A program made the position numbers and the translations under genes. Shown piece after piece: positions 15,086 to 33,999 of a stretch of 35,406 nucleotides of DNA. The notes under the pieces are model-generated. The model was given only the letters and a program-made list of their open reading frames with translations, was not told where the DNA came from and ran no database searches. Each line of letters opens with the position of its first letter. Position 1 is the first letter of the stretch. Origin of the DNA: a virus. The DNA lies in IMG/VR virus record IMGVR_UViG_3300044941_000539, positions 1 to 35,406 of that record, one strand, 5' to 3'.

Positions 15086-15108
15086 GATGAGGCTCCAAGA
15101 AGCACAAG

Positions 15109-15128
15109 GCCCCGCTTGTGAGCGGGGC
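15109..15128 (-). terminator. Leftward terminator after the toxin/immunity-like pair
   Basis: An eight-pair GC-rich stem (15109-15116 with 15121-15128) around a four-base loop, followed leftward by CTTGTGCTTCTTG, a T-rich tail. It ends the AT-rich module and lies 24 bases before the start of the connector gene. The same 13-base tail is found at the hairpin at 3699-3731. Confidence 0.6.
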
Positions 15129-15162
15129 TCAGCGTTGAGGATGTTCTCTGAGGACTCTAATC

Positions 15163-15594: not shown

Positions 15595-16865
15595 TCTTCG
15601 CTACCTTCGTTCTTACGTTTCTTAAATCCGTAAAGCTCATCAACCTTCTTACGTAACTGAAAGTCGTCACTAAACTCCAAAGGCCAACCTCTATGTTTAC
15701 GGTATGCCTCCTCGGCCCGAAATGCAAAGTATTCTTGTTCTCGCCTATATTGTATTCCGGAAAATCTTTCTCTTTGGGTGTTCCAAAAATAACCATGAGC
15801 TACTTCATGTATCATAATCAAGAGTCGTTCTCTGCTGGTTATTCTTACGAGTGCGTTCTGGCCACTGGATACGCCATCCATTTTGCTGTTGAAGTCCAAA
15901 AATGCTTGTACGTCTTCAGGTTGTAAGTATTCGGCTTTAACATATTCATTGGCCAGAACTAAAATAGTCTCAGACCATTGATTGTCATCCAGGAGTAAAA
16001 GAACGATTTGTTCCCGCTGTACCATGTCAGCGAATTCATTATGGAGTTCATTGCCCAGACGAAGCAAGGCGATAGCAGACTCTTCGTCGGGTATCTCGAT
16101 GTCAACCCAGGGTCCGTCCACCTCATCGCGCTCACGAGACGCGACAAGCTGAGCGAGCGCATCATACGCCAGCGGCATCGCTCGCCAGTGGTGGCGGCAG
16201 CCCCACCCGCCGCAGCGAGTCATGACGTCGAGACCCTGCCCGTTGTCGAGCGCAGCGATCTCCTCGCGTGTGAAGGTCTTGCCCACCTTGTCGGCGCAGA
16301 ACGGGCGGTTTCGGCCATCCGAGGGGCCGAGGTAGATGAAGCGCTCTGCGCCCAGCTCCTTGGCCCGCGCTGCGTGGACCTCGCGGGCATGGAGCAGCGC
16401 CACCTCATGGAGCGCGCGGCCCACGCCACTGCGTGCGGCCGCCACTGCGCGCCGCGCGGCGTCGGCGAGGTCGGCGTCGCCGGTGAGCATCGCCTGCTGG
16501 AGCGGGTTGATGGCGCTGGCGATGTAATACGAGAGCGACTCGTTGAGCAGCCGTTGCGCACGCACACGCAGCGCTGCATCTCCTGCTGCACCTTCATCCC
16601 CGAGCAGCGCCCGCTCACCCGCGGCGACGCGATCGAGCAGGCGGTCCATCTGCGCGATGAGCCGAGGCAGCTCGGGGGGGCGCGGCGGGTTGCTTGCGTC
16701 CCCCTCGCCTACAAGCGCTGCCTCGGCCCGCTCGCGCCACTCATCGTGGATGGTGGCCCAGCGGGTCTTGAGCTCGTCGATACCCTGCGCGAGCAGCTCA
16801 TCCTGAGCGCGTGACCCCTCCACCAGCCGGGCGAGCTGCGCGGTCTGGGGAGGAGTGGTGGGCAT
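15591..16865 (-). CDS. MuF-type minor head protein fused to a C-terminal HEVAH metalloprotease-like toxin domain
   Basis: A 424-residue protein. Residues 1-245 are a MuF head morphogenesis protein: a helical first part, then RFIYLGPSDGRNRPFCADKVGKTFTREEI (about 175-203) and MTRCGGWGCRHHW (215-227), the typical Cys/His-rich MuF end. From about residue 255 the composition changes abruptly from GC-rich to AT-rich (around base 16090), and a new domain of about 165 residues starts. It contains LLIMIHEVAHGYFW, an HExxH zinc-protease motif at 353-357, then REQEYFAFRAEEAYRKHRGWP (about 375-395), which could supply a third metal ligand. MuF-linked polymorphic toxins are a known class; packed in the head, the domain could enter the host with DNA. 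The substrate is unknown. Confidence 0.75.
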   Translation of the reverse strand: MPTTPPQTAQLARLVEGSRAQDELLAQGIDELKTRWATIHDEWRERAEAALVGEGDASNPPRPPELPRLIAQMDRLLDRVAAGERALLGDEGAAGDAALRVRAQRLLNESLSYYIASAINPLQQAMLTGDADLADAARRAVAAARSGVGRALHEVALLHAREVHAARAKELGAERFIYLGPSDGRNRPFCADKVGKTFTREEIAALDNGQGLDVMTRCGGWGCRHHWRAMPLAYDALAQLVASRERDEVDGPWVDIEIPDEESAIALLRLGNELHNEFADMVQREQIVLLLLDDNQWSETILVLANEYVKAEYLQPEDVQAFLDFNSKMDGVSSGQNALVRITSRERLLIMIHEVAHGYFWNTQRERFSGIQYRREQEYFAFRAEEAYRKHRGWPLEFSDDFQLRKKVDELYGFKKRKNEGSEE

Positions 16866-18819: not shown

Positions 18820-18931
18820 GCTGGTCCTCCTTATGGTGGTTGGCCGCGCTGCGCAGCATGTGGGCGCAGCGCGGCCTTGCGCAAAGCCGCCGGAGTGGTC
18901 GGCCGCGTCGGGGTGTCCCGATGGGGTGAGT

Positions 18932-20320
18932 TTAGAAGTCCGGCGTCGCCGGGGCCTCGGGCCGATTCATGAGGTCGTTGAGCAGCTCGTCGAGCCGCTC
19001 TGGGCTGACGCGGGAGCCGAGGTAGGCGCGCGTGATCGCTGCCCACGCCTCGCGGGTGACGAGGCCCGGGATCTTGAGGGACGCGAACTTCATCGCGTTG
19101 GCCAACTCGGCGTCGAGATCCTGCGGATCAAAGCTCGTCGGGTACTCCCGCGCGGACTCGCCCGTCTCGGTCATCCATGCGAGCGCCAGTCTATCCACTT
19201 GCGCTTCCAGGCGCGCCATCCGCTGGCCGAACTTCGAGAGCAGCGCGTCCTTATCCATCGTGATGTACGACAGCGCGACGCCGCTTGACACTACATGCCT
19301 CGTGTCCGAGTTGACGCGGCCAAGGCCGCTCAACAGGCGAATCTGCTCTTCAGTCTTCTCGATCTCGGTGCGGATCGCCGCGATCTGCCCCACATCTGGC
19401 GAGAGGTAGTAGGGCGTGTGTGTCGTCTCGTCGTGGAACGGCAGCGCGCCGCTCACCGACCAGTTGACCTGCTCCAGCGCGTCCCACGTCGAGCGCGGGA
19501 CGGCGAGGATCGAGAAGACGTGCTGGTAGATCTGCTCGTCGATGAGGCTGACGAGGTTGGTCAATCTACGGTTCATCGGCGCCAGATCGGTCAGCGCGCT
19601 GTCGCCAAGCGGCTCTACGCCCTTGCGCATCCCCCAGAACGCGAACGCCACCGGCACCTCACCGCATGGATGCTCGGCGCGGGCCACCTCCTGCGTGCTT
19701 GTGCCGTCCTCGCCCTTGCTCACCTCCAGCAGGCGCCAGTCGGTGCGCGTCCAGACCCTCACGCGCTCGGCGGCAGGGGCGCTCGACGCGGCGCTCATTG
19801 GCTCGCGTGTCTCCTCGACGCGCTCGCGGATCGCCACCCAGACGAGCTGACCGCGCCGGTCCACGCGCCAGTCAAGGACGTCCTCGGTGTCCACAATGTA
19901 GGCGTAGGGCCTGCGCCCCGCAGCGCGCTCCTGCGCCCGCGTCAGCGCCTGGCCGCCATCCGGATCGAGCCTGTCCACCACGACCGCCACGCGGCCGCCG
20001 CGCTGCACCAGCTGGGCTGCGCGCTCGTAGAACTCGTCGGCGGGTGTGCCCAGCAGATCCATGTCCGCCCACAGCTCATCAAGGGTCGAGGTCGAGCTGG
20101 TGCGGGGAATTTTCTGCCGGTAGAGGTGCGCCGCGTAGGTGTCGATGACCGCGCGAGCGTGGTTGGGGTGGACCGCGCGCTTGAGCCGCGCCGCGAAGTC
20201 CACCGGACGCTCTTTTGTATGCCGGGCGAGGTAATTCGCGAGGTAGACTGGGCCGCCCTCGTAACACAGACGGTACTCGGTCCACTGGTCGAGCTGCTGG
20301 GTGTAGAGAGGGTGGGGCAT
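18932..20320 (-). CDS. Portal protein
   Basis: A 462-residue protein of the SPP1 gp6-like portal type. Recognisable parts are an N-terminal WTEYRLCYEGGPVYLANYLARHTKE, RAVIDTYAAHLYRQKIP, the clip-and-wing part (YAYIVDTEDVLDWRVDRRGQLVWV), DLAPMNRRLTNLVSLIDEQIYQHVFSILAVP, and a C-terminal helical stem/crown (KTEEQIRLLSGLG, LLSKFGQRMARLEAQVDRLALAWM). It forms the 12-fold ring through which the terminase packs DNA. It starts five bases after the terminase stop. Confidence 0.85.
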   Translation of the reverse strand: MPHPLYTQQLDQWTEYRLCYEGGPVYLANYLARHTKERPVDFAARLKRAVHPNHARAVIDTYAAHLYRQKIPRTSSTSTLDELWADMDLLGTPADEFYERAAQLVQRGGRVAVVVDRLDPDGGQALTRAQERAAGRRPYAYIVDTEDVLDWRVDRRGQLVWVAIRERVEETREPMSAASSAPAAERVRVWTRTDWRLLEVSKGEDGTSTQEVARAEHPCGEVPVAFAFWGMRKGVEPLGDSALTDLAPMNRRLTNLVSLIDEQIYQHVFSILAVPRSTWDALEQVNWSVSGALPFHDETTHTPYYLSPDVGQIAAIRTEIEKTEEQIRLLSGLGRVNSDTRHVVSSGVALSYITMDKDALLSKFGQRMARLEAQVDRLALAWMTETGESAREYPTSFDPQDLDAELANAMKFASLKIPGLVTREAWAAITRAYLGSRVSPERLDELLNDLMNRPEAPATPDF

Positions 20321-20325
20321 GGACT

Positions 20326-21591
20326 TTAGCGGATAAGGGGGGTTGGCTTGAACTTCAAGGGGGGCAGCGCCATCGTGAGGTAGTTGTAAGCGCCGCTCAG
20401 CGCATCCACCGCATCATCGTGCGCAGCACAAGGGAAGCCCTCCAGCTGGTCCAGCGCCTCCAGCGCGTGGGGGCCAGTCGCGCACCAGCAGCAGCGGCGC
20501 TGACGAACCTGTGCGGCCAGCGGCATGGCAGCGGTCACCTTGTCAGTAGCGACCGGCACGCCATCGAAGTCAAACCCCGCAAGCAGCCGAGCATACGACG
20601 CGATTTGCGCCTTGCCAGCCTGTCCGGGATCTTTGTACATCCGCACCGGCACCAGCCGCCCATCCTCGTAGGCCGTGCGTGTGACGAGCTGCTCCACACC
20701 ATCAGGGCCAACCCGCGCTAGCCGCACATCAAGCACCCAAGGCCGCTCGGCGTCATCGACGCCGAGCAGCACGCCGCAAGTCCAGTCAGGATCTTGGTAG
20801 GTGTCCGAGGGCGCGCTCGCGGCCAAGTCCCAGAAGCGCACGAGGCGCTTGAACTTGGGTGCTCGGCTAATGTCCTCGTAGGCGAGCATGTCTCGCTCGA
20901 AGATCTGTCCCTTCTCCACCGCAGACCAGTCGCCCTGCCGCAGCTTGGCGCGCAGCAGCGGCGGCAGCTGCGCCAGCGCCTCCTCGTAGGCCTCCGCGTC
21001 GAGCGAGGGGTTGTCCTCCAAGCGCGAGGGCAAGAAGGCGCGCGAGGCCGTGTTGCCAGCATCAACGAAGCGCTGTTTGACCCACGCATAGCCAGGGCCG
21101 ACGGGGTTTGTGGTCGCCCGCATCCTAAGCGGCACCTTAGCGAGCGGGCCGCTCGACGGCTTGCGCAGGCGAGAGAAGAGGAAGCGGTAGTCTTCCTCGC
21201 GCTTGAACTCGGTCAGCTCCTCGAAGCCGATGAGCTGGTACGCGCTCGACGCGTAGCGGTAACGATCCGCCTCGCGCTCAAGGTAACCAAACGTGATCGT
21301 CGCCCCCTCGGGGCTGGTCCAGCGCTTATCTTGCGCGCTCCAAGTAGCGCCCGTACCGTCGAGCCACAAGTGGGCGCGCGGAATAAGGCCATCGGGCAGC
21401 GCCAGCGCGAGCCGCGACGTGCGCAGGATCAACGCCGCGTAGCCCGGCACATCGAAGAATTGCAGCGCGGCCATCAGCAGCGCGTCGCTCTTACCGCCGC
21501 CCACCGCCCCGCCGAACAGAAGCTCCTTGTGCGGCGCCAGCAGGAACGCCGCCTGCCTGGGGTGCGGCCTGTGGGGGATGTACTTGTTCAA
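20326..21591 (-). CDS. terL: Terminase large subunit
   Basis: A DNA-packaging motor and nuclease. Taking the TTG at 21591 (MNKYIPHRPHPRQAAFL, 421 residues), the Walker A is GAVGGGKS at 28-35, Walker B LIGFEE at 120-125, the RNase-H-like nuclease starts RFWDLAAS (Asp255), and a late catalytic acidic pair is in HDDAVDALSGA (391-401). The frame stays open to an ATG at 21744, but that extension lies wholly inside the terminase-small frame and reads as low-complexity Arg/Ser, so I reject it. No clear ribosome site is visible for the TTG; coupling to the upstream gene is likely. Confidence 0.85.
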   Translation of the reverse strand: MNKYIPHRPHPRQAAFLLAPHKELLFGGAVGGGKSDALLMAALQFFDVPGYAALILRTSRLALALPDGLIPRAHLWLDGTGATWSAQDKRWTSPEGATITFGYLEREADRYRYASSAYQLIGFEELTEFKREEDYRFLFSRLRKPSSGPLAKVPLRMRATTNPVGPGYAWVKQRFVDAGNTASRAFLPSRLEDNPSLDAEAYEEALAQLPPLLRAKLRQGDWSAVEKGQIFERDMLAYEDISRAPKFKRLVRFWDLAASAPSDTYQDPDWTCGVLLGVDDAERPWVLDVRLARVGPDGVEQLVTRTAYEDGRLVPVRMYKDPGQAGKAQIASYARLLAGFDFDGVPVATDKVTAAMPLAAQVRQRRCCWCATGPHALEALDQLEGFPCAAHDDAVDALSGAYNYLTMALPPLKFKPTPLIR

Positions 21592-22192
21592 GCGCGGCGT
21601 CGTCAGCCGGATCAGCCTCGCGGCTGGCGAGTCCGAGCGCGAGGAGGGTCTGTCCGATCTGGACGGCACGTTCAAACTCCTCGTCCGGGTCAAGCGCCGC
21701 TGGCGCCACCTCATCTTGCGGCGGCCCCTCTTGCGCGAAGGCATCAGCCTGCGCGTGGCGCAGCTTCACGAAGCCCGAGATGTCGAGCCAGTCGCGCAGC
21801 GCCTCGCGCTCGGCGCGCAGCAGCTGGCTCACCCGCAGCGCCCACTCACCCGGCTCGATCTCGTTCTGCTGGAGGCAGGCATCCAGCGTCATCCGCGTCG
21901 CCGCGCCGACCTCGGCCAGCTCGCGCAGCCGCTCCAGCACCGGCTGCCCGCGCGCCCACAGCAGCTCGATCTCCCCGCGCACCAGCTCCACGCGCGCATG
22001 GGCCACGAGCGCATCCCAGCCAGGGATGAGCGCCCAGTGGCGCGCGGTGTGGCCGCTCACCCCCACCTCGTCCGCGATCGCGGCCCACTCCAGACCACGC
22101 GCGCGCAGCGCCGCCGCGCGCAGGTGGCGAGGTGTCCACGCCTTCCCGTCTGATCGGGGTGGGATGTGTGTCTTTGTTGTGTTCTGTGTCAT
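21491..22192 (-). CDS. terS: Terminase small subunit
   Basis: A 233-residue protein directly upstream of the large terminase. WTPRHLRAAALRARGLEWAAIADEVGVSGHTARHWA (about residues 20-55) is a helix-turn-helix that would bind the pac or cos site. A helical oligomerisation middle follows (VELVRGEIELLWARGQPVLERLRELAEVG). Its frame runs about 100 bases into the large-subunit gene, where the product becomes Ala/Gly/Pro/Arg rich, so the last 35 residues may be incidental. Start ATG 22192; a GTG one codon earlier is possible. Confidence 0.75.
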   Translation of the reverse strand: MTQNTTKTHIPPRSDGKAWTPRHLRAAALRARGLEWAAIADEVGVSGHTARHWALIPGWDALVAHARVELVRGEIELLWARGQPVLERLRELAEVGAATRMTLDACLQQNEIEPGEWALRVSQLLRAEREALRDWLDISGFVKLRHAQADAFAQEGPPQDEVAPAALDPDEEFERAVQIGQTLLALGLASREADPADDAALEQVHPPQAAPQAGGVPAGAAQGASVRRGGGRR

Positions 22193-22303
22193 CACGCACC
22201 CCTTAAAGGGGCAAACACCCCCGCTAAAAGTCTACACCAGCGCGCGGCGGCGCATCGCAGGCCGATCAAATTAGGTGGGACAAGAAAACCTGTGTAGACC
22301 GCA
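22193..22303 (-). promoter_or_regulatory. Gap before terminase with a GTCTACAC inverted repeat; possible late promoter region
   Basis: This 111-base gap is one of the few real breaks in the leftward run and separates early-type genes from packaging and structural genes. GTCTACAC (22230-22237) and its exact complement GTGTAGAC (22292-22299) form an inverted pair, and a third partial copy GTCTACA (22310-22316) lies in the end of the next gene. These could be sites for a late activator. I see no strong -35/-10 pair, so the promoter role is only a suggestion. Confidence 0.3.
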
Positions 22304-22582
22304 TCAAGGGTCTACAAGCTCTTGCAGCAAGGGCACCGCCCGCTCCAGGACGCGCTGGTTCGCCTGGACCTTGCGCAGCCGCTTCAGCTCGCGCAGCACA
22401 CGCGCGCGCTCGGGCGCCGAGGCCTCGGCCAGCTGGGGCAGCTCGCGCAGGGTGGCGGTCATCTTCCACAGCAGGCGAGCGCCGGGGGATGGCACACCCC
22501 CCGCGAAGCCCGCTGCCTTGGCCGCCTCGCGGCTCCCTGCGCCCTTGAGGCGAGCGCGGACATACTCCTCAGCCTTGCTCAT
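22304..22582 (-). CDS. Small helical protein, possible DNA-binding, 92 aa
   Basis: A 92-residue basic protein. MSKAEEYVRARLKGAGSREAAKAAGFAG resembles the helix-turn-helix opening of small terminase-like proteins, followed by a long helix (TLRELPQLAEASAPERARVLRELKRLRKVQANQRVLERA). It overlaps the upstream gene by 14 bases and has GAGGAGG before its ATG. It could be a packaging accessory or regulator of the late genes downstream; no family is certain. Confidence 0.55.
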   Translation of the reverse strand: MSKAEEYVRARLKGAGSREAAKAAGFAGGVPSPGARLLWKMTATLRELPQLAEASAPERARVLRELKRLRKVQANQRVLERAVPLLQELVDP

Positions 22583-23150
22583 CGGCGTCCTCCTCGGCTA
22601 CAATGCAGCCCTCCTCCTCTTGAGAGGACTGAAACTCGTAGACGATCATGCACGTCCGCACCCTCCGCGGATCGAGGCTGTTGACGCGCCGATCCTCGTC
22701 CTCGCTGACGGTGAGCCGACGCAGCTCCAGCTCGCCCAGGACCTTCAAGACGAGCCGATCCACCAGCGCCACGATGCGCGCTGCGCTGCTCTTGCTCGCC
22801 TCCGGCACCTCACGCAGGCTCAAGAGGTCCACGCGCACCGCCCACCACACACGCCACAGCCGTGCGGCCCGCTCGCCCTCCTCCTGGCCGAGCAGCTCCT
22901 GCGCCCGCACCCACGCACGCTCGAGATCGCGGCGCACATCGAGCGCGAGCAGCTGGCCGCGCGGCATGCCCGGCTGGGCGTTGAGCTGGCAGCCCGCGTA
23001 CACGAGCAGCCCGTAGTCCTGCGCCTTACACGTCCCCGGCAGCAGCTCGGCGAGCGCGGCGTAGACCTGCGCGGCCTCCGCGGCGGTCGCGTAAGACGAC
23101 AGCGGGCTGTCCCACGCATCATCCCCGCCGATGTCCCACGCGCGCGCCAT
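22569..23150 (-). CDS. Hypothetical protein with a CRISPR-like repeat encoding its C-terminus, 193 aa
   Basis: A 193-residue, mostly helical protein (AAQVYAALAELLPGTCKAQDYGLLVYAG, DLERAWVRAQELLGQEEGERAARLWRVWWAVRVDLLSL, RIVALVDRLVLKVLGELELRRL). The last residues, EFQSSQEEEG, are encoded by the dispersed 28-base repeat at 22609-22636. Its ATG overlaps the RecU-like stop (TGATG). No family is recognised; the helical, Trp-rich form and location just before the late genes leave a regulatory role open. Confidence 0.55.
   Translation of the reverse strand: MARAWDIGGDDAWDSPLSSYATAAEAAQVYAALAELLPGTCKAQDYGLLVYAGCQLNAQPGMPRGQLLALDVRRDLERAWVRAQELLGQEEGERAARLWRVWWAVRVDLLSLREVPEASKSSAARIVALVDRLVLKVLGELELRRLTVSEDEDRRVNSLDPRRVRTCMIVYEFQSSQEEEGCIVAEEDADEQG
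22609..22636 (+). repeat. Dispersed 28-base CRISPR-like repeat, copy 1
   Basis: Copy 1 of a four-copy element with consensus CCYTYCTCSYYY followed by GAGAGGACTGAAACT; the last 15 bases are identical in all copies. On the plus strand a small hairpin (CCTC with GAGG) is followed by ACTGAAAC, like a crRNA handle. On the minus strand it codes FQSSQEEE at the end of the gene at 22569-23150. Confidence 0.7.
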
Positions 23151-23761
23151 CACACACCTCCCGTCGGCCAGCGCGAAGCGGCCAGGATCCTCGCCATCGT
23201 GTCCAGCCAGTACTCGCCCGGCTGGACCTTCAACCCCTGCTCAACGAGCTCGCCCCACTGGACGCTCTCGCGGCCTGCGCCGAGCAGCGCGTCATGCGAG
23301 CGCTGGTGCGTGATGCCAGCGATGCGGGCGAGGCGATCCACCGGGATGATGAAGTCCGCCACCGGCGCGAGCGTCTTGCGCGCGTACACGAAGCACAGCT
23401 TGCCCAGGGCCGCGCGCTTGCGCAGGTGCTCGAGCTGCGCGTCGGTCACTAGGTCGAACCGGAAGGCGGTCTTGTCCGCGCTGCTCTTGGCGTCAAACGC
23501 CACCGAGAGCCCGCCCTTGAGATCGCCCTCAAAATCGACGCTGGGCGCACCGGAGTACACCGCCACGAACAACCCCTCACCCACACCCTCCACGCGCACT
23601 CCGTGCCGCTCCAGCCACGTCACGAGCGGTCCCAGGTGGTTGATCGGAGGCTTGCACCGCTGGACCTCACAGCGGCCCCTCGCGTTGAGCCACTCGCAGC
23701 TCTCGATGAGGAACCGCTCCAACGCCGCCCCGTTCGCCTGCGCTTTGCGTCCGCCGCTCAT
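23150..23761 (-). CDS. RecU-like Holliday junction resolvase / PD-(D/E)XK nuclease
   Basis: A 203-residue nuclease. Glu15 in NGAALERFL, Asp76 in SVDFEGDL and Asp90-x-Lys92 in VAFDAKSS give the E...D...DxK active site of the RecU/PD-(D/E)XK fold; FDLVTDAQLEHLRKRAALGKLCFVYAR (103-127) matches the RecU hQxxxLxxxxxxGxxxFxxxxF region. It probably resolves branched DNA from phage replication before packaging. Its ATG overlaps an upstream stop and has GAGGAGG before it. Confidence 0.75.
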   Translation of the reverse strand: MSGGRKAQANGAALERFLIESCEWLNARGRCEVQRCKPPINHLGPLVTWLERHGVRVEGVGEGLFVAVYSGAPSVDFEGDLKGGLSVAFDAKSSADKTAFRFDLVTDAQLEHLRKRAALGKLCFVYARKTLAPVADFIIPVDRLARIAGITHQRSHDALLGAGRESVQWGELVEQGLKVQPGEYWLDTMARILAASRWPTGGV

Positions 23762-23764
23762 CGC

Positions 23765-24040
23765 TCACCTCCTCGCCCGCCCACCGCGCCCTCGCCCACC
23801 TGCGCCCACGGTCGGTCCAGCTCTGCGGGCGCCTCCAGCCAGCGCTCCTGACGCACGGAGCGGGCCGCTGTCGCGTTTTGTGTGGTGGGCGCGGGTCGGG
23901 GTGTCTGGCGTCTCGGCGCGCCTCCTCGTGCCCCTGCGCGCGTCGTGTGCGGCGTCACCAGCCGCGCCATCCCCCGCGCGCCACAGCCCCTCGCAGTCGC
24001 TTTTGAGCAACTGCTCCAGGCTCTGCCACTGGTCGCTCAT
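23765..24040 (-). CDS. Small hypothetical protein, probably with a frame disruption
   Basis: From ATG 24040 (good GGGAGG site) the frame begins MSDQWQSLEQLLKSDCEGLW and stays open for 91 residues. The first 60 codons strongly favour G/C in the third position; after about 23850 that bias moves to the frame that stops at 23758, where the product reads QERWLEAPAELDRPWAQVGEG and whose stop overlaps the RecU start as ATGA. This looks like one gene with a one-base shift near 23835-23860, from sequencing error, real mutation or programmed shifting. No function is recognised. Confidence 0.4.
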   Translation of the reverse strand: MSDQWQSLEQLLKSDCEGLWRAGDGAAGDAAHDARRGTRRRAETPDTPTRAHHTKRDSGPLRASGALAGGARRAGPTVGAGGRGRGGRARR

Positions 24041-24411
24041 CGCGCACCTCCCATAACGGTCATGGTCCTCTCCACGGTCCAATGCGCCTCATCGGATAGT
24101 TCGGAGGGTTTGAGAAAAAACCAAAAACCCTCCCGACCGCATGACAGGCCGTCCGTCGGATGGTTAGGATAGTTAGGATAGTTTTGAACTTCGGTTCTCG
24201 TGCGAGAGATTAAAAACGCACGTTGCGCATGCACACGCACGCGAGCGCGCCCACGCGCGCACATGTGCGCGCCTACGCACACGCGAGGCCGCAAACCCTC
24301 CGAACCCTCCGAACCATCCGACGGGCCGCATTGCAGGCCGCTGGGAGGGTTTTTGGTGTGGAGGCTCAACTCTCCTAACCATCCGACGCACCGCATTCCA
24401 CCGTCGCTCAT
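24037..24411 (-). CDS. Uncertain ORF running through the origin-like repeats
   Basis: A 124-codon frame that joins both neighbours by four-base ATGA overlaps and has GGAGGGG before its ATG, which is unexpected for chance. Against it, the product is made largely from repeats (NYPNYPNHP, SEGSEG, VRVHAQR) and codon use lacks the strong GC third-position bias of the phage. It may be translated only to couple the helicase to the next gene, or be a chance reading of the repeat array. Confidence 0.25.
   Translation of the reverse strand: MSDGGMRCVGWLGELSLHTKNPPSGLQCGPSDGSEGSEGLRPRVCVGAHMCARGRARVRVHAQRAFLISRTRTEVQNYPNYPNHPTDGLSCGREGFWFFLKPSELSDEAHWTVERTMTVMGGAR
24081..24402. repeat. Symmetrical iteron array with alternating purine-pyrimidine core; candidate replication origin
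   Basis: Four copies of TCGGATRGTTMGGAKRGTT-like units. Two point right (24081-24110 and 24121-24184, the latter with TTAGGATAG repeated) and two point left (24293-24356 and 24365-24402). The inner pair begins with identical CCAAAAACCCTCCC and shares CCGTCGGATGGTT; the layout is symmetrical about base 24239. The centre (about 24217-24286) is alternating purine-pyrimidine DNA with a perfect 18-bp palindrome at 24255-24272. It directly follows the helicase gene. Origins with iterons beside the replication genes are common in phages; the role is inferred. Confidence 0.55.
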
Positions 24412-26132
24412 GGCTTCCCCTCCGCGTCTTCAGCGCAGGTCACGAGCTGGTTCCAGCCGCACCGGACGCGATAGGCCGCCACCCCTTTGGCCGTCGGGAA
24501 GTTGTGCCGGTCGTCCTTGACCACCCCTAGCGCCCGCAGACGCCGCCCGAAGCGCGTGGCGCTGATGGGGAACGGGTTGGACCGCATCCCCAAGCTCTTG
24601 GTGCAGAAGTCGATGAACGCGTTGTAGAGTGAGGTCGCCTGCACCCACTGAGGATCTGCCGGATCATCGCGCAGATGATCCTCGAAGAATGTAAGCACCG
24701 CATCCGTATCGCGGCGCCACTCGTGGGCCGCAGCTGCGACGCTCGCGACCTGTGTGTAACCCTCCTGGGCGAGCAGCCGCCGCGCGCCGTCGAGCGCCCA
24801 GCACGTCACCGCGTCCAGCTCCTGCGCGATGATCTTCTCCTCCAGCTTGCGGATCTTCTTGGCGCCGCTGAAGCGCTGCTTGAACTCGACGACGATCCAG
24901 CGCCGCCAGAAGCCCGCGCTGGTGTCGCTGACCGGCGGCAGCACGTTGGCGCTGATGGCCCACGCGGCCCTCGGCGTGAAGCGGAACACCTGCCCGCCCG
25001 GCTGGCGCGCATCGAGCGCGTTGCCCGACACCGCTGCCTTGAAGGCGTTGCTCTGGAGGATCTCGGTGGTGGGCATCTCCTGCACCACGTTGAGCCGCTT
25101 GCCATCTAGCGCGGCGCGGTAATAGGCTCCGGTGGAGCCGCCCAGGTCGGCGGGGTTGACGTTGGAGCGGGCGCCCTCGGGGATGAGCGCGGTCAGCACG
25201 TCGAGGAACACGCTCTTGCCGTTGCCGCCGTCGCCGACGAGCAGCAGGGCCTGCTGGAACTGCGGGGCGAGTCCCAGAAGCGCGGCCCCTGCGAACTCTT
25301 GCAGCAGCGCCACCTTCTGTTCGGCGTCCTCCTCGCCCTCGAACACCGTGGACAGGTAGCGCTCCCACAGCTCGCCCTTGCGCGGGGTGCCGTCCCAGTC
25401 GATCGGCAGCTTCCACGTCGCGCGGTGCTGCGGCCCGAGCTTCTCGCTCTTGAGCTCGCGCAGGTCCTCGGAGACGTGCAGGAAGGTCGAGGCCATCGGC
25501 AGCCCCTCGGGCGCGGCGGAGAAGAACCCGATGTCCTGATGGTAGCCCCACTCTGCGGGCAAGGCATAGGCGAAGTCGAGGATGGTGGCGGTGCCCTGGA
25601 TCTCCAGCTCTCGCCAGCCTTTCCGCCCGACGACGAGCGCGCCGGACCAGTCCGCGATCTTGTTCTTGAGCTGGGAGGGATAGCGCGGCGTCCAGATGCG
25701 CTCGTGATCATCGTAGACCCACAGCAGGCCGCGATCGTAGGCCACCGGCTCGGAGGAGTCGCCCTGGATGTCGAGCAGGAGCCGACGGGCCAAGCTCGGT
25801 GCATCCGCGCGGGCGAAGGTGGGGGCGCCACCGGCGCGCAGCTGGGCGGCCTCCTCGACCACGCCGCGCATCTTGGCGCTGCGCTCGGCCTCGCGCTCCT
25901 CGGCGCGCCTTTTCTTGGCCGCCTCGGCTTCGGCCTTGCGGATGATGGCCGCGCACGCCCTGACCGCCGCGCGCCATGTGGCGAACAGGGTCTTTGGCTC
26001 CGCGAGGAGTTCGTGGGCGCGGACCTCGATGGCGGGCCAGCCAGCCGGATCGTCGTGGAGCAGACGCGCCGCGGCCTCAACCATCTCGCGCTCAAGCGGC
26101 GCGGCCAGAATCTCGTCGATGGTCTTGCTCAT
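24408..26132 (-). CDS. SF3/D5-type replicative helicase (P4 alpha / D5-like)
   Basis: A 574-residue phage/plasmid primase-helicase C-terminal type protein. The first 150 residues are charged and helical, then a D5_N-like region (WVYDDHERIWTPRYPS, MASTFLHVSEDLREL, YLSTVFEGEEDAEQKVALLQEFAGAALLG). The Walker A GDGGNGKS is at 300-307, followed by GGSTGAYYRAALDGKRLNVVQEMPTTEIL (Walker B region), AWAISANVLPPVSDTSAGFWRRWIVVEF (sensor and arginine) and a winged-helix end. It would unwind DNA at the origin. It overlaps the primase gene by ATGA, and the candidate origin begins right after its stop. Confidence 0.85.
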   Translation of the reverse strand: MSKTIDEILAAPLEREMVEAAARLLHDDPAGWPAIEVRAHELLAEPKTLFATWRAAVRACAAIIRKAEAEAAKKRRAEEREAERSAKMRGVVEEAAQLRAGGAPTFARADAPSLARRLLLDIQGDSSEPVAYDRGLLWVYDDHERIWTPRYPSQLKNKIADWSGALVVGRKGWRELEIQGTATILDFAYALPAEWGYHQDIGFFSAAPEGLPMASTFLHVSEDLRELKSEKLGPQHRATWKLPIDWDGTPRKGELWERYLSTVFEGEEDAEQKVALLQEFAGAALLGLAPQFQQALLLVGDGGNGKSVFLDVLTALIPEGARSNVNPADLGGSTGAYYRAALDGKRLNVVQEMPTTEILQSNAFKAAVSGNALDARQPGGQVFRFTPRAAWAISANVLPPVSDTSAGFWRRWIVVEFKQRFSGAKKIRKLEEKIIAQELDAVTCWALDGARRLLAQEGYTQVASVAAAAHEWRRDTDAVLTFFEDHLRDDPADPQWVQATSLYNAFIDFCTKSLGMRSNPFPISATRFGRRLRALGVVKDDRHNFPTAKGVAAYRVRCGWNQLVTCAEDAEGKP

Positions 26133-27343
26133 CGCACCCCCCCCGCGCCGACGTGCTGCATCTCGCGCACGGTGCCGAGCACCCGCGCGCCCTCGATGAG
26201 CCGCTGGACCTCGCCAGAGTGGATGCGCTCGGCGGGCAGCGTCGCCTCTGCGGCGTCCCACAGCACCTGCTCCCAGCGCCCCTCATCGAGCGCGCCCGCC
26301 AGCACCAGCCCGTACAACGAGAGCGCCTGGTCGCGCAGCGTCTCGTGACGCGCGCCCTCGCCAGCCTCAAGGATCATCGTGACGGCGCGGGTGAGCGCGG
26401 CGCTGACGTAGCGCGCGACGCCCTTGGCGCGGTCGGTGGCCGAGCCCGCCAACACCCGCGCGGCACGCACCGCCACGGCCTCCCGCTCGGCGCGGCGCTT
26501 ATGGCGCAGCGCCGCCTGCGCGGCCTCCCAGTCCGCCAGCGCCACGATCTCAGCGGGCAGCGCGACCACATCCACAGCGCCATCGAGGCGGCGCCAGCGG
26601 CCATGCGCGGCGAGCGGATCGGCCACACCCTCGAACAGCGGATCGGCGCAGTAGTGGACCTGGACGGCGTTGAACAGGGCCAGATCCACGCCCGCGAGCC
26701 CGCGCTGGTAGCGCGCGACGTTGTAGGCCTTGAAGTAGTCGCGCAGGCTCTGCGAACAGACGGCGCGGTCGGCCCAGTACCAGACGTGCGCCTTGAGCGT
26801 GTCCCAGCCTGTGACGCCCGCCGAGCTGCTCCACTGGACCACACACGACGCGCGGCGGAAGGGCTCAGGGAGCGCGCCGAGCGCCACCATCAGCCCCTCC
26901 CACGGATCGCCGCCATCCTCCGGGCGCCGCACGCCAGCGGGCCAGCTCCACTTGTCGATGTCCAGGCACAACCAGCGCCGGTCGTGCTCCTCAAAGCAGG
27001 CGGTCGAGGCGAGGTATTTGGTCGAGGGGTCGCCCTCGACCCTGAGCTTGTACTGATCCCTGAGCGTGCGCTGGACGCGCGCGGGGTCCACACCCTCGCG
27101 CAACTGCCCGCGCACGATCAGGTGATCTGGGCAGCGCGCCGCAGCGCGTAGCACAAACTCCAGCGCGGCAAGGCTGTTCACGCAGATGCGCCCAGCTTCG
27201 AAGAACATCCCCGCATCGTACGGCAGCGCCTCGCCCACCCGGAACGTCTTGGTGCAGCGCCGCCCCTGCTCGGCGCGGCAGAACCACACCTCATCTTCAC
27301 CTTGACCAAACCTCGCCCGATTATTAGGATCTTGTTCACTCAT
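26129..27343 (-). CDS. AEP-like (prim-pol type) DNA primase
   Basis: A 404-residue protein before the SF3 helicase. RRWLCLDIDKWSW (residues 122-134) gives the DxD metal site, and RASCVVQWSSSAG ... LKAHVWYWAD (164-192) gives the S-x-H-like part of archaeo-eukaryotic primases; YNVARYQRGLAGVDLALFNAVQVHYCADPLF supplies another conserved acidic region. It would make primers for the helicase encoded next. ATG 27343 has AGGAG upstream; an ATG at 27367 is possible. Confidence 0.7.
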   Translation of the reverse strand: MSEQDPNNRARFGQGEDEVWFCRAEQGRRCTKTFRVGEALPYDAGMFFEAGRICVNSLAALEFVLRAAARCPDHLIVRGQLREGVDPARVQRTLRDQYKLRVEGDPSTKYLASTACFEEHDRRWLCLDIDKWSWPAGVRRPEDGGDPWEGLMVALGALPEPFRRASCVVQWSSSAGVTGWDTLKAHVWYWADRAVCSQSLRDYFKAYNVARYQRGLAGVDLALFNAVQVHYCADPLFEGVADPLAAHGRWRRLDGAVDVVALPAEIVALADWEAAQAALRHKRRAEREAVAVRAARVLAGSATDRAKGVARYVSAALTRAVTMILEAGEGARHETLRDQALSLYGLVLAGALDEGRWEQVLWDAAEATLPAERIHSGEVQRLIEGARVLGTVREMQHVGAGGVR

Positions 27344-27659
27344 CACAGCTACTCCTGTGGTGGTCATCGAGGCCCGCGCTGTTGGTAGCAGCGCGGGCCT
27401 CATCTGTTTGAGCGCCCTCCGGGGCAAAAGCATGGACTGTAAGATCCCCGGAGGGCTGGCCCTCGCGCAAGGGTGCGACGCGCGAGGGATCGGTGATGCC
27501 GAGAGCCACGGCGACGAGCCGTGCGCACTCAGCGCAATAAAACTCAGGGAACCGCGCGTCCTGGAGCTGCAAGCGCCACGCGACCGGCGCGCCGCAGTAG
27601 TGCGGCAGCGTCCACTCACAGAGGTTGTGCTTACTGGGCGTCCAAGCGTGTTCGCGCAT
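27336..27659 (-). CDS. Small zinc-ribbon-like protein, 107 aa
   Basis: A 107-residue protein with paired Cys/His groups: HNLCEWTLPHYCG and, 20 residues on, FYCAECARLV, a likely zinc site. It overlaps the stop of the gene before it (TGATG) and the start of the primase, so it is part of the same operon. The acidic/Ala-rich C-terminus is likely disordered. It may bind DNA or the primase; no named family. Confidence 0.6.
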   Translation of the reverse strand: MREHAWTPSKHNLCEWTLPHYCGAPVAWRLQLQDARFPEFYCAECARLVAVALGITDPSRVAPLREGQPSGDLTVHAFAPEGAQTDEARAATNSAGLDDHHRSSCDE

Positions 27660-30316: not shown

Positions 30317-30529
30317 ATGTTGCTCCTCAAACCTGCCACGCGCGGCGAGATCAGCCGCATGTTAGCCACCGATGCGCCCGCCAACCGCCGCGTCAACCTC
30401 CCTGGCCTCATCGGCCACCAGATCGAGCGCGAGGCGAGCGCCAACGCCGCGCTCGCGCCGATGGCGCAGTTCCCCACGATCCTCGCCCTGCGGGTGATCC
30501 GCGCTGCTTGGGAGGGTCTGACGCGATGA
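30317..30529 (+). CDS. Small hypothetical protein, 70 aa
   Basis: It begins MLLLKPATRGEISRMLATDAPANRR at the base after the preceding stop and ends overlapping the next ATG (ATGA). It is basic and helical with no cysteine or membrane segment. No family is recognised; its tight placement supports it as a real gene. Confidence 0.6.
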   Translation: MLLLKPATRGEISRMLATDAPANRRVNLPGLIGHQIEREASANAALAPMAQFPTILALRVIRAAWEGLTR

Positions 30530-31563
30530 CACCCCAAGAGTTCGCGGCGCTCTCGCGCGCCGACAAGATCCGCGCCGTCGTCGCGTGGAACCTCGCGAAC
30601 AAGCACCTGACCTTCGCCTCGCGCGCTGCTGCCCGTGCTTGCGCCGAAGTGTTCGGCGCGCCGATCAACACGGTGCGCGGTCTCTTCGGCGCCGCGGATC
30701 GGGCCGAGGGCTGGTGCGACTGCTGTGGCGGGATCATGCTCAAGGTCGAGGGGCAGTGCCTGGAGTGCGGCACGATCCGCAACCTCGACTGCGAGGGCTG
30801 CCCGACTGGCTACGCCACGACTGAGGAGCCGATGCCGCTCTGCCCCGACTGCTCGACCCCCGAACCCGACGCCAAGGAGATCAAGCCGATCCGCGACCGC
30901 GCAGCCGATGCCGCCGCAGGCCGCGCCGCTGCGCGCCAGCCCCGCCCTCCCAAGCGGAAGCGGCGCTACTACGTCGATGATGATGGCCTGTTCCAGCCGG
31001 TCAAGGCCGGGGAGCCGCTGCACATCTGCCCGACGTGTGGGGCGCAGGCGTTCATCCACTACGAGCTCGCCGCTGGCTTCGGCATCCGCAACATGGGCGG
31101 CGTGCTGCGCCCGCAGTCCTTGTGCCGCGCCTGCCGCACCAACCATGCCCGAACGCGCCGCAAGGCGCAGTTCGACCTCGTGAGCGACAGCGTCGCTCAG
31201 GGCGCTGCTCCGCCGCGCGCGATGAAGCAGGGCGAGCTGGACGAGATCGCCCGGCTCGCCGTTGTGGCGCTGCGTCTTGGGGCGGCCACGGTAGATTTGA
31301 CGGTCAAGAAGGACCCCAAGGTCGCTTTCGTTGCTGACACGGCGACCACGGCGCTCTACCCACTCTGTCCCGAAGGGCCGCTCGGTCTGATAGTCACCCA
31401 TGATCACGAGGGCGGCACGCTGCGCCTGCGCTTTGATGCCTCCGCGTTGCGCGACTGGGCTGTCTCGCAGGGCGCAAAGCTCATCGCCGAGGCGCAGACG
31501 GGGGAGCTGTCAGCCTACCAGAACCCGCCCGGCTTGGCCGGCCTGCTCGGAGGGATGCGCTGA
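30526..31563 (+). CDS. Multi-zinc-ribbon protein, 345 aa
   Basis: A 345-residue protein with many CxxC pairs: C64/C66/C67, C78/C81, C89/C92, C106/C109, then after a basic linker (RQPRPPKRKRRYY) C168/C171 and C200/C203. These suggest at least three zinc ribbons. The N-terminus (FAALSRADKIRAVVAWNLANKHLTFASRAAARACAEVFG) looks like a helix-turn-helix. The last 110 residues are a different alpha/beta domain. It precedes the replication initiator and loader, so a DNA-binding replication or transcription role is likely but not shown. Confidence 0.6.
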   Translation: MTPQEFAALSRADKIRAVVAWNLANKHLTFASRAAARACAEVFGAPINTVRGLFGAADRAEGWCDCCGGIMLKVEGQCLECGTIRNLDCEGCPTGYATTEEPMPLCPDCSTPEPDAKEIKPIRDRAADAAAGRAAARQPRPPKRKRRYYVDDDGLFQPVKAGEPLHICPTCGAQAFIHYELAAGFGIRNMGGVLRPQSLCRACRTNHARTRRKAQFDLVSDSVAQGAAPPRAMKQGELDEIARLAVVALRLGAATVDLTVKKDPKVAFVADTATTALYPLCPEGPLGLIVTHDHEGGTLRLRFDASALRDWAVSQGAKLIAEAQTGELSAYQNPPGLAGLLGGMR

Positions 31564-32654
31564 TGGACTGGCTCAGTGACCAGCTCGACGCGGCGGGGCT
31601 GTTCTTCGGGCGCGAGCGCGAGCTGCTGGAGACCGTCGCCAGCCTCGCGCGGACGATGCCCGACGGCGCGCTCGTGTGGCGCGGCACCAACGCGCAGCTC
31701 GCCGAGCGCCTGGACTGCACCACCCGCACGCTGGGGCGCGTGTGGCAGACGCTGCGCGCAATGGGACTCCCTTGGCTTGAGGTGACCGGGACGAGGGGGG
31801 CGGGGCTGTATGTCCGTTGCGCGCCGGCGCGCAACGGACAAGCAACGGACAAGCAAGAGACAAGTAACGGACAAGCAACGGACAAGCAAGAGACAAGTAA
31901 CGGACAAGCAACGGACAAGCAAGAGACAAGTAACGGACAAGCAACGGACAAGCAACGGACAAGCAACGGACAAGTAACGGACACTCGCGCGCGCGTACCA
32001 TATGAGCAAATTCTTCCTACGGAAGAATCTGCTGGCTTGCCTGCCGCGAGCGCGTACGAGGAGGCACCCGAGGCGTCCACGCCAGCCAGCCAGCCGCTGA
32101 CCGGTCTGGCTGAATGGCTGAAGGTGGAGCTCACCGGGCGCGCCACGCGGCTCGTCCAGCATCCCGCCCACCAGCCCGACCCCGCTGCGCTCGTCACGGC
32201 AGCGGCCAGCCTCATGGCGAGCCTCGGCAGCGAGGCCAGCGCGCGGCGCTACACCGAAGCGCGGCTGCTGGCCTACGAGCTGCGCCCTCCGACGAATCGC
32301 CCCGGCACGATGGCCCGGCTCATCATGTGGCTCTTGCAGGACAGCGCCCGCGCCGATCTGCGCGCCGCTGCTCAGGGCGCCGCTGAGGCGCCGCCCGCCC
32401 GCGCCGCCTCGCAGAGCTACGCCTCTGAGGGCTTCGACCAAGACCTCGCCGCAGCGGTCGCCCACGGCACGCGCAACGCCGAGGCCGACGCCGAGGCGAG
32501 CGCGGCGTGGGAGGCCAAGCTCTACCGCGAGCGCTGCGAGCAGGCGTTCCGCGAGGCCAAATACTTCGGGGAGATCCCCAAAGATCTCACCTACAGCGAC
32601 GAAGCGATGACGCGCTACGGGCTGTGGCCTGAGCGCGAGGAGACCACACGATGA
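31563..32654 (+). CDS. O-like replication initiator with winged-helix N-terminus and internal iterons
   Basis: A 363-residue protein. Residues 15-80 (FGRERELLETVASLARTMPDG, NAQLAERLDCTTRTLGRVWQTLRAMGL) are a winged helix of the type that binds origin repeats. Residues 90-140 are an 11-residue repeat, NGQATDKQETS, present four times with small changes, coded by the repeat array at 31832-31985. The C-terminal half is helical. The layout (DNA-binding part, origin within gene, loader gene next) resembles lambda O. Start overlaps the upstream stop (TGATG) and the end overlaps the loader gene (ATGA). It could act on its own repeats to open DNA. Confidence 0.65.
   Translation: MDWLSDQLDAAGLFFGRERELLETVASLARTMPDGALVWRGTNAQLAERLDCTTRTLGRVWQTLRAMGLPWLEVTGTRGAGLYVRCAPARNGQATDKQETSNGQATDKQETSNGQATDKQETSNGQATDKQRTSNGQVTDTRARVPYEQILPTEESAGLPAASAYEEAPEASTPASQPLTGLAEWLKVELTGRATRLVQHPAHQPDPAALVTAAASLMASLGSEASARRYTEARLLAYELRPPTNRPGTMARLIMWLLQDSARADLRAAAQGAAEAPPARAASQSYASEGFDQDLAAAVAHGTRNAEADAEASAAWEAKLYRERCEQAFREAKYFGEIPKDLTYSDEAMTRYGLWPEREETTR
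31811..32028. repeat. Origin-like structure: 30-bp perfect palindrome, fourteen 11-bp iterons and a downstream inverted repeat
   Basis: Bases 31811-31840 are a perfect 30-base palindrome ending in ACGGACA. From 31832 to 31985 there are fourteen tandem 11-base units, mostly CAACGGACAAG with CAAGAGACAAG and TAACGGACAAG variants in a 33-base higher-order pattern. A less GC-rich stretch follows with ATTCTTCC / GGAAGAAT arms (32010-32017, 32021-32028). This is the plan of an iteron origin with its melting region. Confidence 0.65.
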
Positions 32655-33685
32655 TCGACGACTTGGAAGACATCCTGCGCGGCAGCGGCATCCCCACGCC
32701 CGCGCTCGGCTGCGGCAGCGCGGCCATCCCCACGATGCTCGGCGCGCTGCGGCCCGACTTCGCCCGCTTCACCCGCGAGCTGCTGGCCGGCCAAGCTCCC
32801 GCCCGCGCCGCGCGCCGCGCCTGGCCGCAGGACACCGAGCGCGAGGCCGAGACCAGCGCCCGCGACGCGCTGGCGCGTCCAGAGATCCGCGACATCCTCG
32901 CCGCCTACGAGCGCGAGGCTGCTTGCCCAGACTGCGGCGAGAGGCGCTGCCACGCCGAGGCGTTCGGGCGGTTCTTCTGGGAGGCGTGTGAGCCTTGTGA
33001 GCGCCGCAGTCTGCGCGAGCGGATGAAGGCGTGGCGCGATCGCGTGGCGCGTGACTGGAGCGCGAAGATGGCGCAGCAGGTCGGCGCGACGCACTGGGGG
33101 CAGCCCGTCGAGCTGATCGCCCCGCTCAAGCGCCTGCTCTCCTCGCTCAGCGATGAGGCCGCGCCCGTCTGGGCAGCCTATCTGTGGGGCAAGGCAGGCA
33201 CGGGCAAGACACAGCAGGCCGCCGAGGCGCTGCGCGGCGCGCTGGCCGCGCGCCTGGGCAAGCTCAGCCCGCAGGACATGGAGCGCTTCGGCGACGCGAC
33301 CCCGCCGCTGCCCGCCTACGTCTTCGCGAGCGAGGCCGCGCTGCTGCGCGCGCTGCGGCCCGGCGGTGATGGGGTGTTCGAGCGGTACACGGGCGCGGCC
33401 CTGTTGGTCCTGGATGACGCGGGCGAGAGCAAGGCGACCGATTGGGCCTATGAGATCCTCAAGAGCCTCATTGATGAGCGGTACAAGACGCGCCGCCCCA
33501 CGATCTTCACCTCCAACCGCTCGCTCCCCGATCTGCGCGCCGCCGGCCTCTACGACGAGCGCATCACCAGCCGGATCTTCGAGATGTGCGGCGGTCTGGG
33601 CGCACACGCGGCGGGGACGCTGACGATCCACGAATGCAAGATCAACTACCGTATGCCGCGTGGCGAGGAAGGAGGTCTGTGGTGA
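32651..33685 (+). CDS. DnaC/IstB-like helicase loader ATPase with N-terminal zinc motif
   Basis: A 344-residue AAA+ protein. The C-terminal half has Walker A GKAGTGKT (180-187), Walker B ALLVLDDAGE (Asp255, Asp256) and sensor FTSN in PTIFTSNRSL, followed by RITSRIFEMCGG, the arginine-finger part of DnaC/DnaI-type loaders. The N-terminal half holds a probable zinc site (C92, C95, C100, H101, C113, C116) unlike DnaC. It would load the host replicative helicase at the O-bound origin. Overlaps with both neighbours show coupling. Confidence 0.8.
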   Translation: MIDDLEDILRGSGIPTPALGCGSAAIPTMLGALRPDFARFTRELLAGQAPARAARRAWPQDTEREAETSARDALARPEIRDILAAYEREAACPDCGERRCHAEAFGRFFWEACEPCERRSLRERMKAWRDRVARDWSAKMAQQVGATHWGQPVELIAPLKRLLSSLSDEAAPVWAAYLWGKAGTGKTQQAAEALRGALAARLGKLSPQDMERFGDATPPLPAYVFASEAALLRALRPGGDGVFERYTGAALLVLDDAGESKATDWAYEILKSLIDERYKTRRPTIFTSNRSLPDLRAAGLYDERITSRIFEMCGGLGAHAAGTLTIHECKINYRMPRGEEGGLW

Positions 33686-33999
33686 TCACGCTACACGAGA
33701 CGACAAACCCCGAGGCGCCCGCGCTGATCCTCCCGTTCGGGCGCGCCGCCGCGCCGAGCTGGCGCGCGTGGATCGGCTACGGCCACATCGTGTTCGAGCA
33801 GGCCGAGGGCGCGACCCGCGACGCGGCGATCCGCGCGCTGCTGGCGCTGCTCAGCGCGCAGGGCTCGCTTGAGGTGGGCGCGCCGCAGTGGGTGTGCGCC
33901 CAGCAGCTCGGCGAGGACGACGGCAAGCAGTGGTTGCTCGCGTGCGCGGAGGCGGCGGGGCAGGGGGGCTGGACCTTGAAGATCATGGAGGTGGTGTGA
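33682..33999 (+). CDS. Hypothetical protein, 105 aa
   Basis: It starts at GTG 33682 (GTGA overlapping the loader stop), with AAGGAGG six bases upstream. The protein MITLHETTNPEAPALILPFGR ... WRAWIGYGHIVFEQAEGATRDAAIRALLALLSAQG is a small alpha/beta domain. The stop overlaps the next ATG (TGATG). No family is recognised. Confidence 0.6.
   Translation: MITLHETTNPEAPALILPFGRAAAPSWRAWIGYGHIVFEQAEGATRDAAIRALLALLSAQGSLEVGAPQWVCAQQLGEDDGKQWLLACAEAAGQGGWTLKIMEVV

What the first reader, a model, noticed from the sequence alone, without database searches (positions are those of the whole stretch)
31811..32028. Perfect 30-bp palindrome, fourteen 11-bp iterons and a melting-like segment inside the initiator gene
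The palindrome has no loop and ends in the iteron core ACGGACA, so the iteron sequence is present in both directions before the tandem array. The 11-base period is one helical turn, placing all sites on one DNA face. Followed by a less GC-rich stretch with an eight-pair hairpin and by a DnaC-like loader gene. The 33-base higher order makes a clean 11-residue protein repeat, so DNA and protein constraints coexist.
Basis: partly seen in the sequence, partly recalled or inferred. Interest (0 to 1): 0.72.

Follow-up and report, generated by a model that had tools for sequence, protein, structure and literature searches.

The report
Phage replication origin inside initiator gene
Inside the gene for a virus's replication-starting protein lies a row of 14 short DNA repeats that this same protein very probably grips to open the DNA and load a helicase: an extended form of an arrangement known from phage lambda, in a virus that also carries a second candidate origin.

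Summary
A perfect 30-bp palindrome (31811-31840) runs into 14 tandem 11-bp units (31831-31984): 11 with core ACGGACA, 3 with AGAGACA. The least stable DNA of the replication module follows (31996-32035, with an 8-bp hairpin), then a DnaC-like loader gene. The repeat is constrained as DNA: codon choice is about 10 SD off the phage's usage, and the peptide alone does not force an 11-bp period. It has many relatives: 207 similar 11-bp arrays in open frames of viral contigs, 141 in winged-helix initiator genes, usually just after the winged helix. Across 109 non-redundant initiators, recognition-helix residues covary with the iteron triplet, and the window's helix (R55, T56, R59) has mostly neighbours that read CGG, its actual triplet. 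Best reading: a lambda-type in-gene origin (about 0.75). Window-specific: the longest array seen (14 against 2-9) and a palindrome holding an inverted iteron. The "one face" claim is wrong (17 degrees drift per site). The phage also has an SF3 primase-helicase with its own repeat cluster (24050-24420), so which origin is used, and when, is open.

The parts
31563..32654 (+). O-like replication initiator gene (363 aa, P0001)
   Evidence: ORF; whole protein phrog_345 'replication initiation O-like' E 4.5e-4, but that match needs the repeat region (N-terminus alone: no phrog_345 hit); Pfam HTH_11 E 7e-4, below cut-off
31611..31820 (+). Predicted winged-helix DNA-binding domain, residues 17-86
   Evidence: AlphaFold2 single-sequence model, mean pLDDT 73, H17-31 E37-41 H43-49 H54-66 E72-77 E81-86; Foldseek matches are mostly winged helices; best viral match a replication initiator A family protein, E 1.6e-3
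31722..31760 (+). Recognition helix, residues 54-66, with R55, T56 and R59 at the covarying positions
   Evidence: HMM alignments, model, covariation
31811..31840 (.). Perfect 30-bp palindrome TGTCCGTTGCGCGCC/GGCGCGCAACGGACA; right arm holds iteron 1, left arm an inverted iteron core
   Evidence: (I7), for chance expectation
31831..31984 (+). 14 tandem 11-bp iterons (consensus CGG-ACA-AGY-AA in register); units 3, 6, 9 degenerate (GAG-ACA)
   Evidence: codon usage and recoding tests
31996..32035 (.). Least stable DNA of the module, putative duplex-unwinding element
   Evidence: AT-rich DNA follows the array in 117/120 in-gene relatives
32010..32028 (.). 8-bp hairpin ATTCTTCC-TAC-GGAAGAAT
   Evidence: sequence; folding; imperfect 13-bp arms (I21)
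32651..33685 (+). DnaC-like AAA+ helicase loader gene (344 aa, P0002), start overlapping the initiator stop by 4 nt
   Evidence: phrog_50 E 5.5e-24; solved DnaC/DnaI/phage loader relatives 3ec2 E 4.8e-5, 4m4w, 5he8; Walker A GKAGTGKT, sensor TSN
24050..24420 (.). Second origin-like cluster: 12 of the window's 15 AACYHTCC sites, both orientations, around palindrome 24255-24272
   Evidence: sequence
24408..26132 (-). SF3/P4-like primase-helicase of the second replication module
   Evidence: phrog_6088 E 2e-54, DUF5906 E 3e-14

Best explanation
This is an in-gene replication origin of the phage lambda kind. The initiator's N-terminal winged helix binds the tandem 11-bp iterons in the middle of its own gene. 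The resulting nucleoprotein filament (O-some-like) strains the adjacent AT-rich stretch at 31996-32035 open. The initiator then recruits the DnaC-like loader encoded by the next, overlapping gene, which puts the host DnaB-type helicase on the opened strand. Shown here by computation: array, palindrome, weak-melting stretch, gene order, DNA-level constraint, family-wide recurrence of the layout, helix-iteron covariation. Inferred: actual binding by P0001, unwinding, helicase loading, and that replication starts here. The palindrome is probably an extra, divergently oriented binding site (autoregulation or copy control, or bidirectional set-up); that part is a guess.
For: Layout equals lambda O/P: iterons mid-gene, AT-rich DNA after them, 4-nt overlap with the loader gene (lambda-type origin in the middle of O: PMC7466680). 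Repeat is DNA-constrained: synonymous codon log-likelihood -82.7 against -37.3 +/- 4.7 simulated; recoding the same peptide gives lag-11 identity at most 0.62 against 0.85. 207 open frames with 11-bp arrays from three scans, 141 of them in winged-helix initiators, with AT-rich DNA next to 117/120 of the first two sets. Covariation: helix positions 15, 12 and 11 rank 2, 3 and 5 of 108 columns for the iteron triplet T1; leave-one-out prediction of the triplet from the helix 58% against 18% shuffled; 6 of the 10 nearest helices of the window belong to CGG iterons, the window's triplet (base rate 17/109). R with G and Q with A in one set, 8/0 against 2/20, p 8e-6; 8 of 9 sister contrasts have R on the G side only. 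R59 matches the residue found in 16 of 17 CGG initiators.
Against: The window's winged helix is not significantly similar in sequence to the comparator family (HMM E 0.05-0.15), and the phrog_345 match depends on the repeat-encoded stretch. The C-terminal half matches nothing. The phage has a second, self-contained replication module with its own repeat cluster. The initiator lies in the same orientation as xis and int, unusual for lytic replication genes. The R-to-G rule was noticed and tested on the same set, and G3 is also met by other residues in other subfamilies.
Confidence: 0.75

Rival explanations
1. The array is bound by the initiator but serves mainly control (autorepression, copy-number or incompatibility handcuffing); replication proper starts at the SF3 primase-helicase origin at 24.05-24.42 kb.
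For: Second module with initiator-helicase-primase and 12 clustered 9-10-bp sites in both orientations. Initiator co-oriented with xis and int, unlike usual lytic replication genes (same remark for phage B83 in PMC6669507). 14 sites and a palindrome exceed what the 2-9-copy relatives have. The block 18867-27422 with the SF3 module is found 100% identical in another contig next to different DNA.
Against: A loader gene directly follows, which control alone would not need; the AT-rich opening element is in the right place.
Confidence: 0.18
2. Centromere: a winged-helix protein on tandem 11-bp sites as a partition complex, like TubR/tubC or ParR/parC, keeping an extrachromosomal prophage.
For: Winged helix plus one-turn iterons resembles TubR/tubC, and 11-bp repeats resemble parC of ParR (from general knowledge).
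Against: No actin-, tubulin- or ParA-like partner was seen next to it; the neighbour is a DnaC-like loader. The in-gene, AT-rich-flanked layout is that of origins.
Confidence: 0.04
3. A protein-level low-complexity linker whose DNA repeat arose by slippage and has no function as DNA.
For: The array sits between the winged helix and the C-terminal half and encodes an 11-residue repeat; the 33-bp order suggests growth in frame-keeping steps.
Against: Codon choice and 11-bp period are not explained by the peptide; arrays of 3-5 copies elsewhere encode about one peptide repeat and still keep the 11-bp period; the iteron triplet covaries with the recognition helix; an inverted copy lies outside the array.
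Confidence: 0.03

Closest known systems
Phage lambda O gene / ori-lambda and Stx-phage relatives
   Same: Iterons in the middle of the initiator gene after its DNA-binding domain, AT-rich tract right after them, loader gene overlapping by 4 nt.
   Different: Lambda has 4 annotated 18-bp iterons at 20-24-bp steps; here 14 at 11-bp steps plus a 30-bp palindrome. Lambda's loader P is not a DnaC-type ATPase (general knowledge), this one is. No sequence match to O families other than phrog_345.
O-/DnaD-like replisome organizers of Bacillota and other phages (phrog_2514, phrog_186, phrog_345), e.g. Bacillus phage Pookie
   Same: Winged helix, then in-gene 11-bp iterons NNN-ACA-NNN-AA, then AT-rich DNA, in several cases with a DnaC-like loader or replicative helicase gene next.
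   Different: 2-9 copies and no palindrome in relatives; mostly AT-rich genomes; the window's winged helix is too diverged to be joined by sequence (E 0.05).
P4-alpha-type SF3 primase-helicase replicon
   Same: The window's second module is of this kind, with its own clustered short repeats.
   Different: Not the finding; on the opposite strand 4-8 kb away.
pMV158 RepB bind locus; TubR/tubC; ParR/parC (from general knowledge)
   Same: About one-turn (11-12-bp) tandem binding sites.
   Different: Other protein folds or functions (rolling-circle initiation, partition).

Membership tests
Lambda-type in-gene origin (O/P module) | Tandem iterons inside the initiator gene between DNA-binding domain and C-terminal part | tested here: met
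Lambda-type in-gene origin (O/P module) | AT-rich, easily melted tract adjacent to the iterons | tested here: met
   31996-32035 least stable stretch of the 3.5-kb module
Lambda-type in-gene origin (O/P module) | Helicase loader gene directly downstream | tested here: met
   phrog_50 E 5.5e-24, 4-nt overlap; DnaC/DnaI structures
Lambda-type in-gene origin (O/P module) | Initiator homologous to lambda O | tested here: inconclusive
   only phrog_345 at E 4.5e-4, lost without the repeat region
Lambda-type in-gene origin (O/P module) | Initiator binds the iterons and replication starts there | not testable with these tools
   experiment needed
Phage O-/DnaD-like winged-helix initiators with 11-bp iterons | 11-bp in-gene array in the frame NNN-ACA-NNN-AA right after the winged helix | tested here: met
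Phage O-/DnaD-like winged-helix initiators with 11-bp iterons | Significant sequence similarity of the winged helix | tested here: not met
   hmmsearch E 0.15 and 0.05; hhalign probability 1.6%
Phage O-/DnaD-like winged-helix initiators with 11-bp iterons | Winged-helix fold | tested here: met
   AF2 model pLDDT 73, Foldseek winged helices; model from a single sequence
Phage O-/DnaD-like winged-helix initiators with 11-bp iterons | Recognition-helix residues agree with the iteron triplet | tested here: met
   nearest helices mostly CGG; R59 as in 16/17 CGG initiators
ParR/parC or TubR/tubC centromere | Partner NTPase of ParM/TubZ/ParA type in the operon | tested here: not met
   neighbour is DnaC-like; no such family among the proteins scanned

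The most novel reading that the evidence does not exclude
The phage carries two complete replicons used at different stages: an SF3 primase-helicase origin in the lytic arm and a lambda-type O/loader origin in the excision/integration arm that drives replication after excision or keeps a plasmid prophage. The palindrome plus 14 iterons would act as a switch or copy-control element. Alongside, a helix-to-iteron recognition code would let origin specificity be read from sequence across hundreds of uncharacterised phages.
Probability: 0.2. Interest if true: 0.75.

Novelty: new variant of a known kind. Interest (0 to 1): 0.52.

Why it matters
In-gene origins are textbook for lambda, but this work places the window's array in a large, mostly undescribed set of phage initiators that carry one-turn (11-bp) iterons in their own genes. 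It also finds that the recognition helix and the variable triplet of the iteron change together. If confirmed, origin specificity of many metagenomic phages could be predicted from the initiator sequence, and minimal phage origins could be tested directly. The window adds the longest array seen here, a palindromic head, and a phage with two replication modules.

Tried and rejected
Close relatives of P0001 and P0002 in viral contigs, genomes, phages and plasmids: none for P0001 beyond the repeat itself, so copy-number variation among close relatives could not be tested; the one near-identical record (L012) stops short of the array. A reversed-pattern scan meant as a negative control turned out to be a second iteron class of the same family (62 of 80 in winged-helix initiators); it is therefore not a null, and the shared core alone is weak evidence of common ancestry. 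Mutual information over all columns was swamped by subfamily structure; pair contrasts were used instead. The R11-G3 rule does not extend to all subfamilies (S11 with G in 6 cases). Protein linker, partition and chance explanations: see rivals. Host could not be identified. The Paenibacillus oralis array with the identical iteron lies outside any long frame and stays unexplained. Genome sampling of phrog_2514 in 249 Bacillota gave only 11 loci; several had periods of 11 or 12, others 5-6 or 15, so one-turn iterons are common but not universal.

Full report
The sequence. The window is an IMG/VR virus record. Its genes are those of a temperate myovirus: terminase, portal, sheath, baseplate, and an integrase at one end. 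The + strand ORF 31563-32654 (P0001, 363 aa) contains a perfect loop-free 30-bp palindrome at 31811-31840. From 31831 to 31984 it contains 14 tandem 11-bp units. Eleven units have ACGGACA; units 3, 6 and 9 have AGAGACA. This three-unit order makes the 33-bp, 11-residue repeat NGQATDKQETS. AACGGACA is found nowhere else in the 35 kb except once inverted, in the palindrome's left arm. An arm of 15 is expected 0.0002 times by base composition; the longest arm in each of 100 Markov simulations was 14 or less. After a short GC-rich spacer comes 31996-32035, the least stable stretch of 30400-33900, with the 8-bp hairpin at 32010-32028. The next gene (32651-33685) overlaps by 4 nt and is a DnaC-like AAA+ loader (phrog_50 E 5.5e-24; DnaC, DnaI and a phage loader among solved structures).

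DNA or protein constraint? In the repeat the phage uses codons it otherwise avoids (GCA 5%, GGA 5%, AGT 2% of their synonyms). The log-likelihood is -82.7 against -37.3 +/- 4.7 for the same peptide coded in the phage's usual way. Recoding the same peptide gives lag-11 identity of 0.50 on average and at most 0.62, against 0.85 observed. The 11-bp period is therefore a DNA property. A perfect 11-bp array encodes the same cyclic 11-residue peptide in all three frames, so expansion by 33 bp keeps the frame; that the array grew in such steps is an inference. One-face binding is not exact: at 10.5 bp/turn each site turns 17 degrees, 223 degrees over the array.

Relatives. P0001 has no close relative in the collections searched. 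Comparing initiator genes that sit next to loaders in other phages showed an 11-bp in-gene array in Bacillus phage Pookie, CTAACAAGCAA against CGGACAAGCAA here. Three pattern scans of viral contigs followed: ACAAGYAANNN (57 records), a reversed pattern intended as control (83 records) and GGACANNNAAN (76 records). Of 207 arrays inside an open frame, 141 lie in a winged-helix initiator family, typically about 105-150 residues into the open frame. These proteins match phrog_2514/186/345, the DnaD-like and O-like initiators. The control was thus itself a second iteron class, YGA-ACA-NNN-AA. I report this as a failed control that revealed how general the layout is. In the first two sets, AT-rich DNA follows the array in 117 of 120 cases, copies number 2-9 against 14 in the window, and no relative has an inverted iteron nearby or a palindrome arm of 8 or more. 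In the third set three arrays have such a palindrome arm and two others an inverted 9-mer, none both. The sample was gathered by pattern, so the copy-number distribution is biased.

Who binds the iterons? In register T1-ACA-T2-AA, the triplet T1 varies between phages and is largely homogeneous within arrays. In the first set, recognition-helix position 11 is R in 8 of 10 initiators with T1 ending in G and in 0 of 20 ending in A, where Q dominates (Fisher p 8e-6). Nine greedy sister contrasts give R on the G side in 8 and never on the A side. This rule was noticed by eye and tested on the same set. In the new third set, position-15 arginine goes with a pyrimidine at N1 (18/2 against 2/13, p 1e-5), while G at N3 is also met by other residues. 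Over 109 non-redundant initiators and 762 pairs matched for identity outside the helix, helix positions 15, 12 and 11 rank 2, 3 and 5 of 108 columns for T1; the top column lies at the start of the wing. Leave-one-out prediction of T1 from the helix succeeds in 58% against 18% when shuffled. The window's helix (T53 T54 R55 T56 L57 G58 R59) was aligned by HMM, before any of this. Six of its ten nearest helices belong to CGG iterons (base rate 17/109), and CGG is the window's triplet. Because the third scan was designed on the window's GG, GG triplets are over-represented in the sample. An AlphaFold2 model from the single sequence (pLDDT 73) is a winged helix with helix 54-66 as recognition helix. 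Foldseek matches are mostly winged helices; the best viral one is a replication initiator.

Limits. The window's winged helix is not joined to the comparator family by sequence (E 0.05-0.15), and its phrog_345 match vanishes when the repeat region is removed. The agreement in layout, iteron frame and helix residues therefore supports 'works like', not proven common descent.

Known or new? Lambda-type origins, with iterons and an AT-rich tract in the middle of the initiator gene, are well known (PMC7466680; annotated in NC_001416; a putative one in Francisella phage KIRK, PMC7924643). Iteron number varies between lambda (4) and Stx phages (6), so variable copy number would not refute an origin. 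I found no paper in the library on the 11-bp in-gene class as such; the library holds only open-licence papers.

A second module. On the - strand lie an SF3/P4-like primase-helicase (24408-26132) and an upstream primase-like gene (26129-27367). Between the helicase gene and the next gene, 24050-24420 holds 12 of the window's 15 AACYHTCC sites in both orientations around a 9+9 palindrome. The O-like gene shares its orientation with xis and int; the authors of phage B83 remark that this is not typical and may point to extrachromosomal replication in lysogeny (PMC6669507). Which origin acts when is open.

Verdict. A lambda-type in-gene origin with one-turn iterons is the best-supported explanation (0.75). 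The palindrome and the 14 copies are features of this phage. The recognition-helix correlation and the two replication modules are the parts worth following up.

Noticed in passing
24050-24420: Second origin-like cluster: 12 of the window's 15 AACYHTCC sites in both orientations around GCGCGCACATGTGCGCGC (24255-24272), directly downstream of an SF3 primase-helicase gene.
   Followed up: partly
27422; L012:1-9463: Another contig (IMGVR_UViG_3300044940_000308) is 100% identical to 18867-27422 over 8,556 bp and then switches to unrelated DNA: a sharp mosaic border, so the SF3/terminase block occurs next to DNA other than this O/loader/int arm.
   Followed up: partly
L009:5001-5070 (Paenibacillus oralis provirus): The exact window iteron AACGGACAAGC in tandem, but in no long open frame, between phage tail genes and regulatory genes.
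   Followed up: no
L024-L159, L178-L251: Iteron triplet T1 and recognition-helix residues covary across winged-helix phage initiators: a possible origin-specificity code.
   Followed up: yes
30508-31563: Gene upstream of the initiator encodes a protein with several CxxC stretches, possibly zinc-binding (phrog_34160, E 1e-6, function unknown).
   Followed up: no
15000-16000: GC falls to 49% in an otherwise 68% GC phage: possible acquired segment.
   Followed up: no
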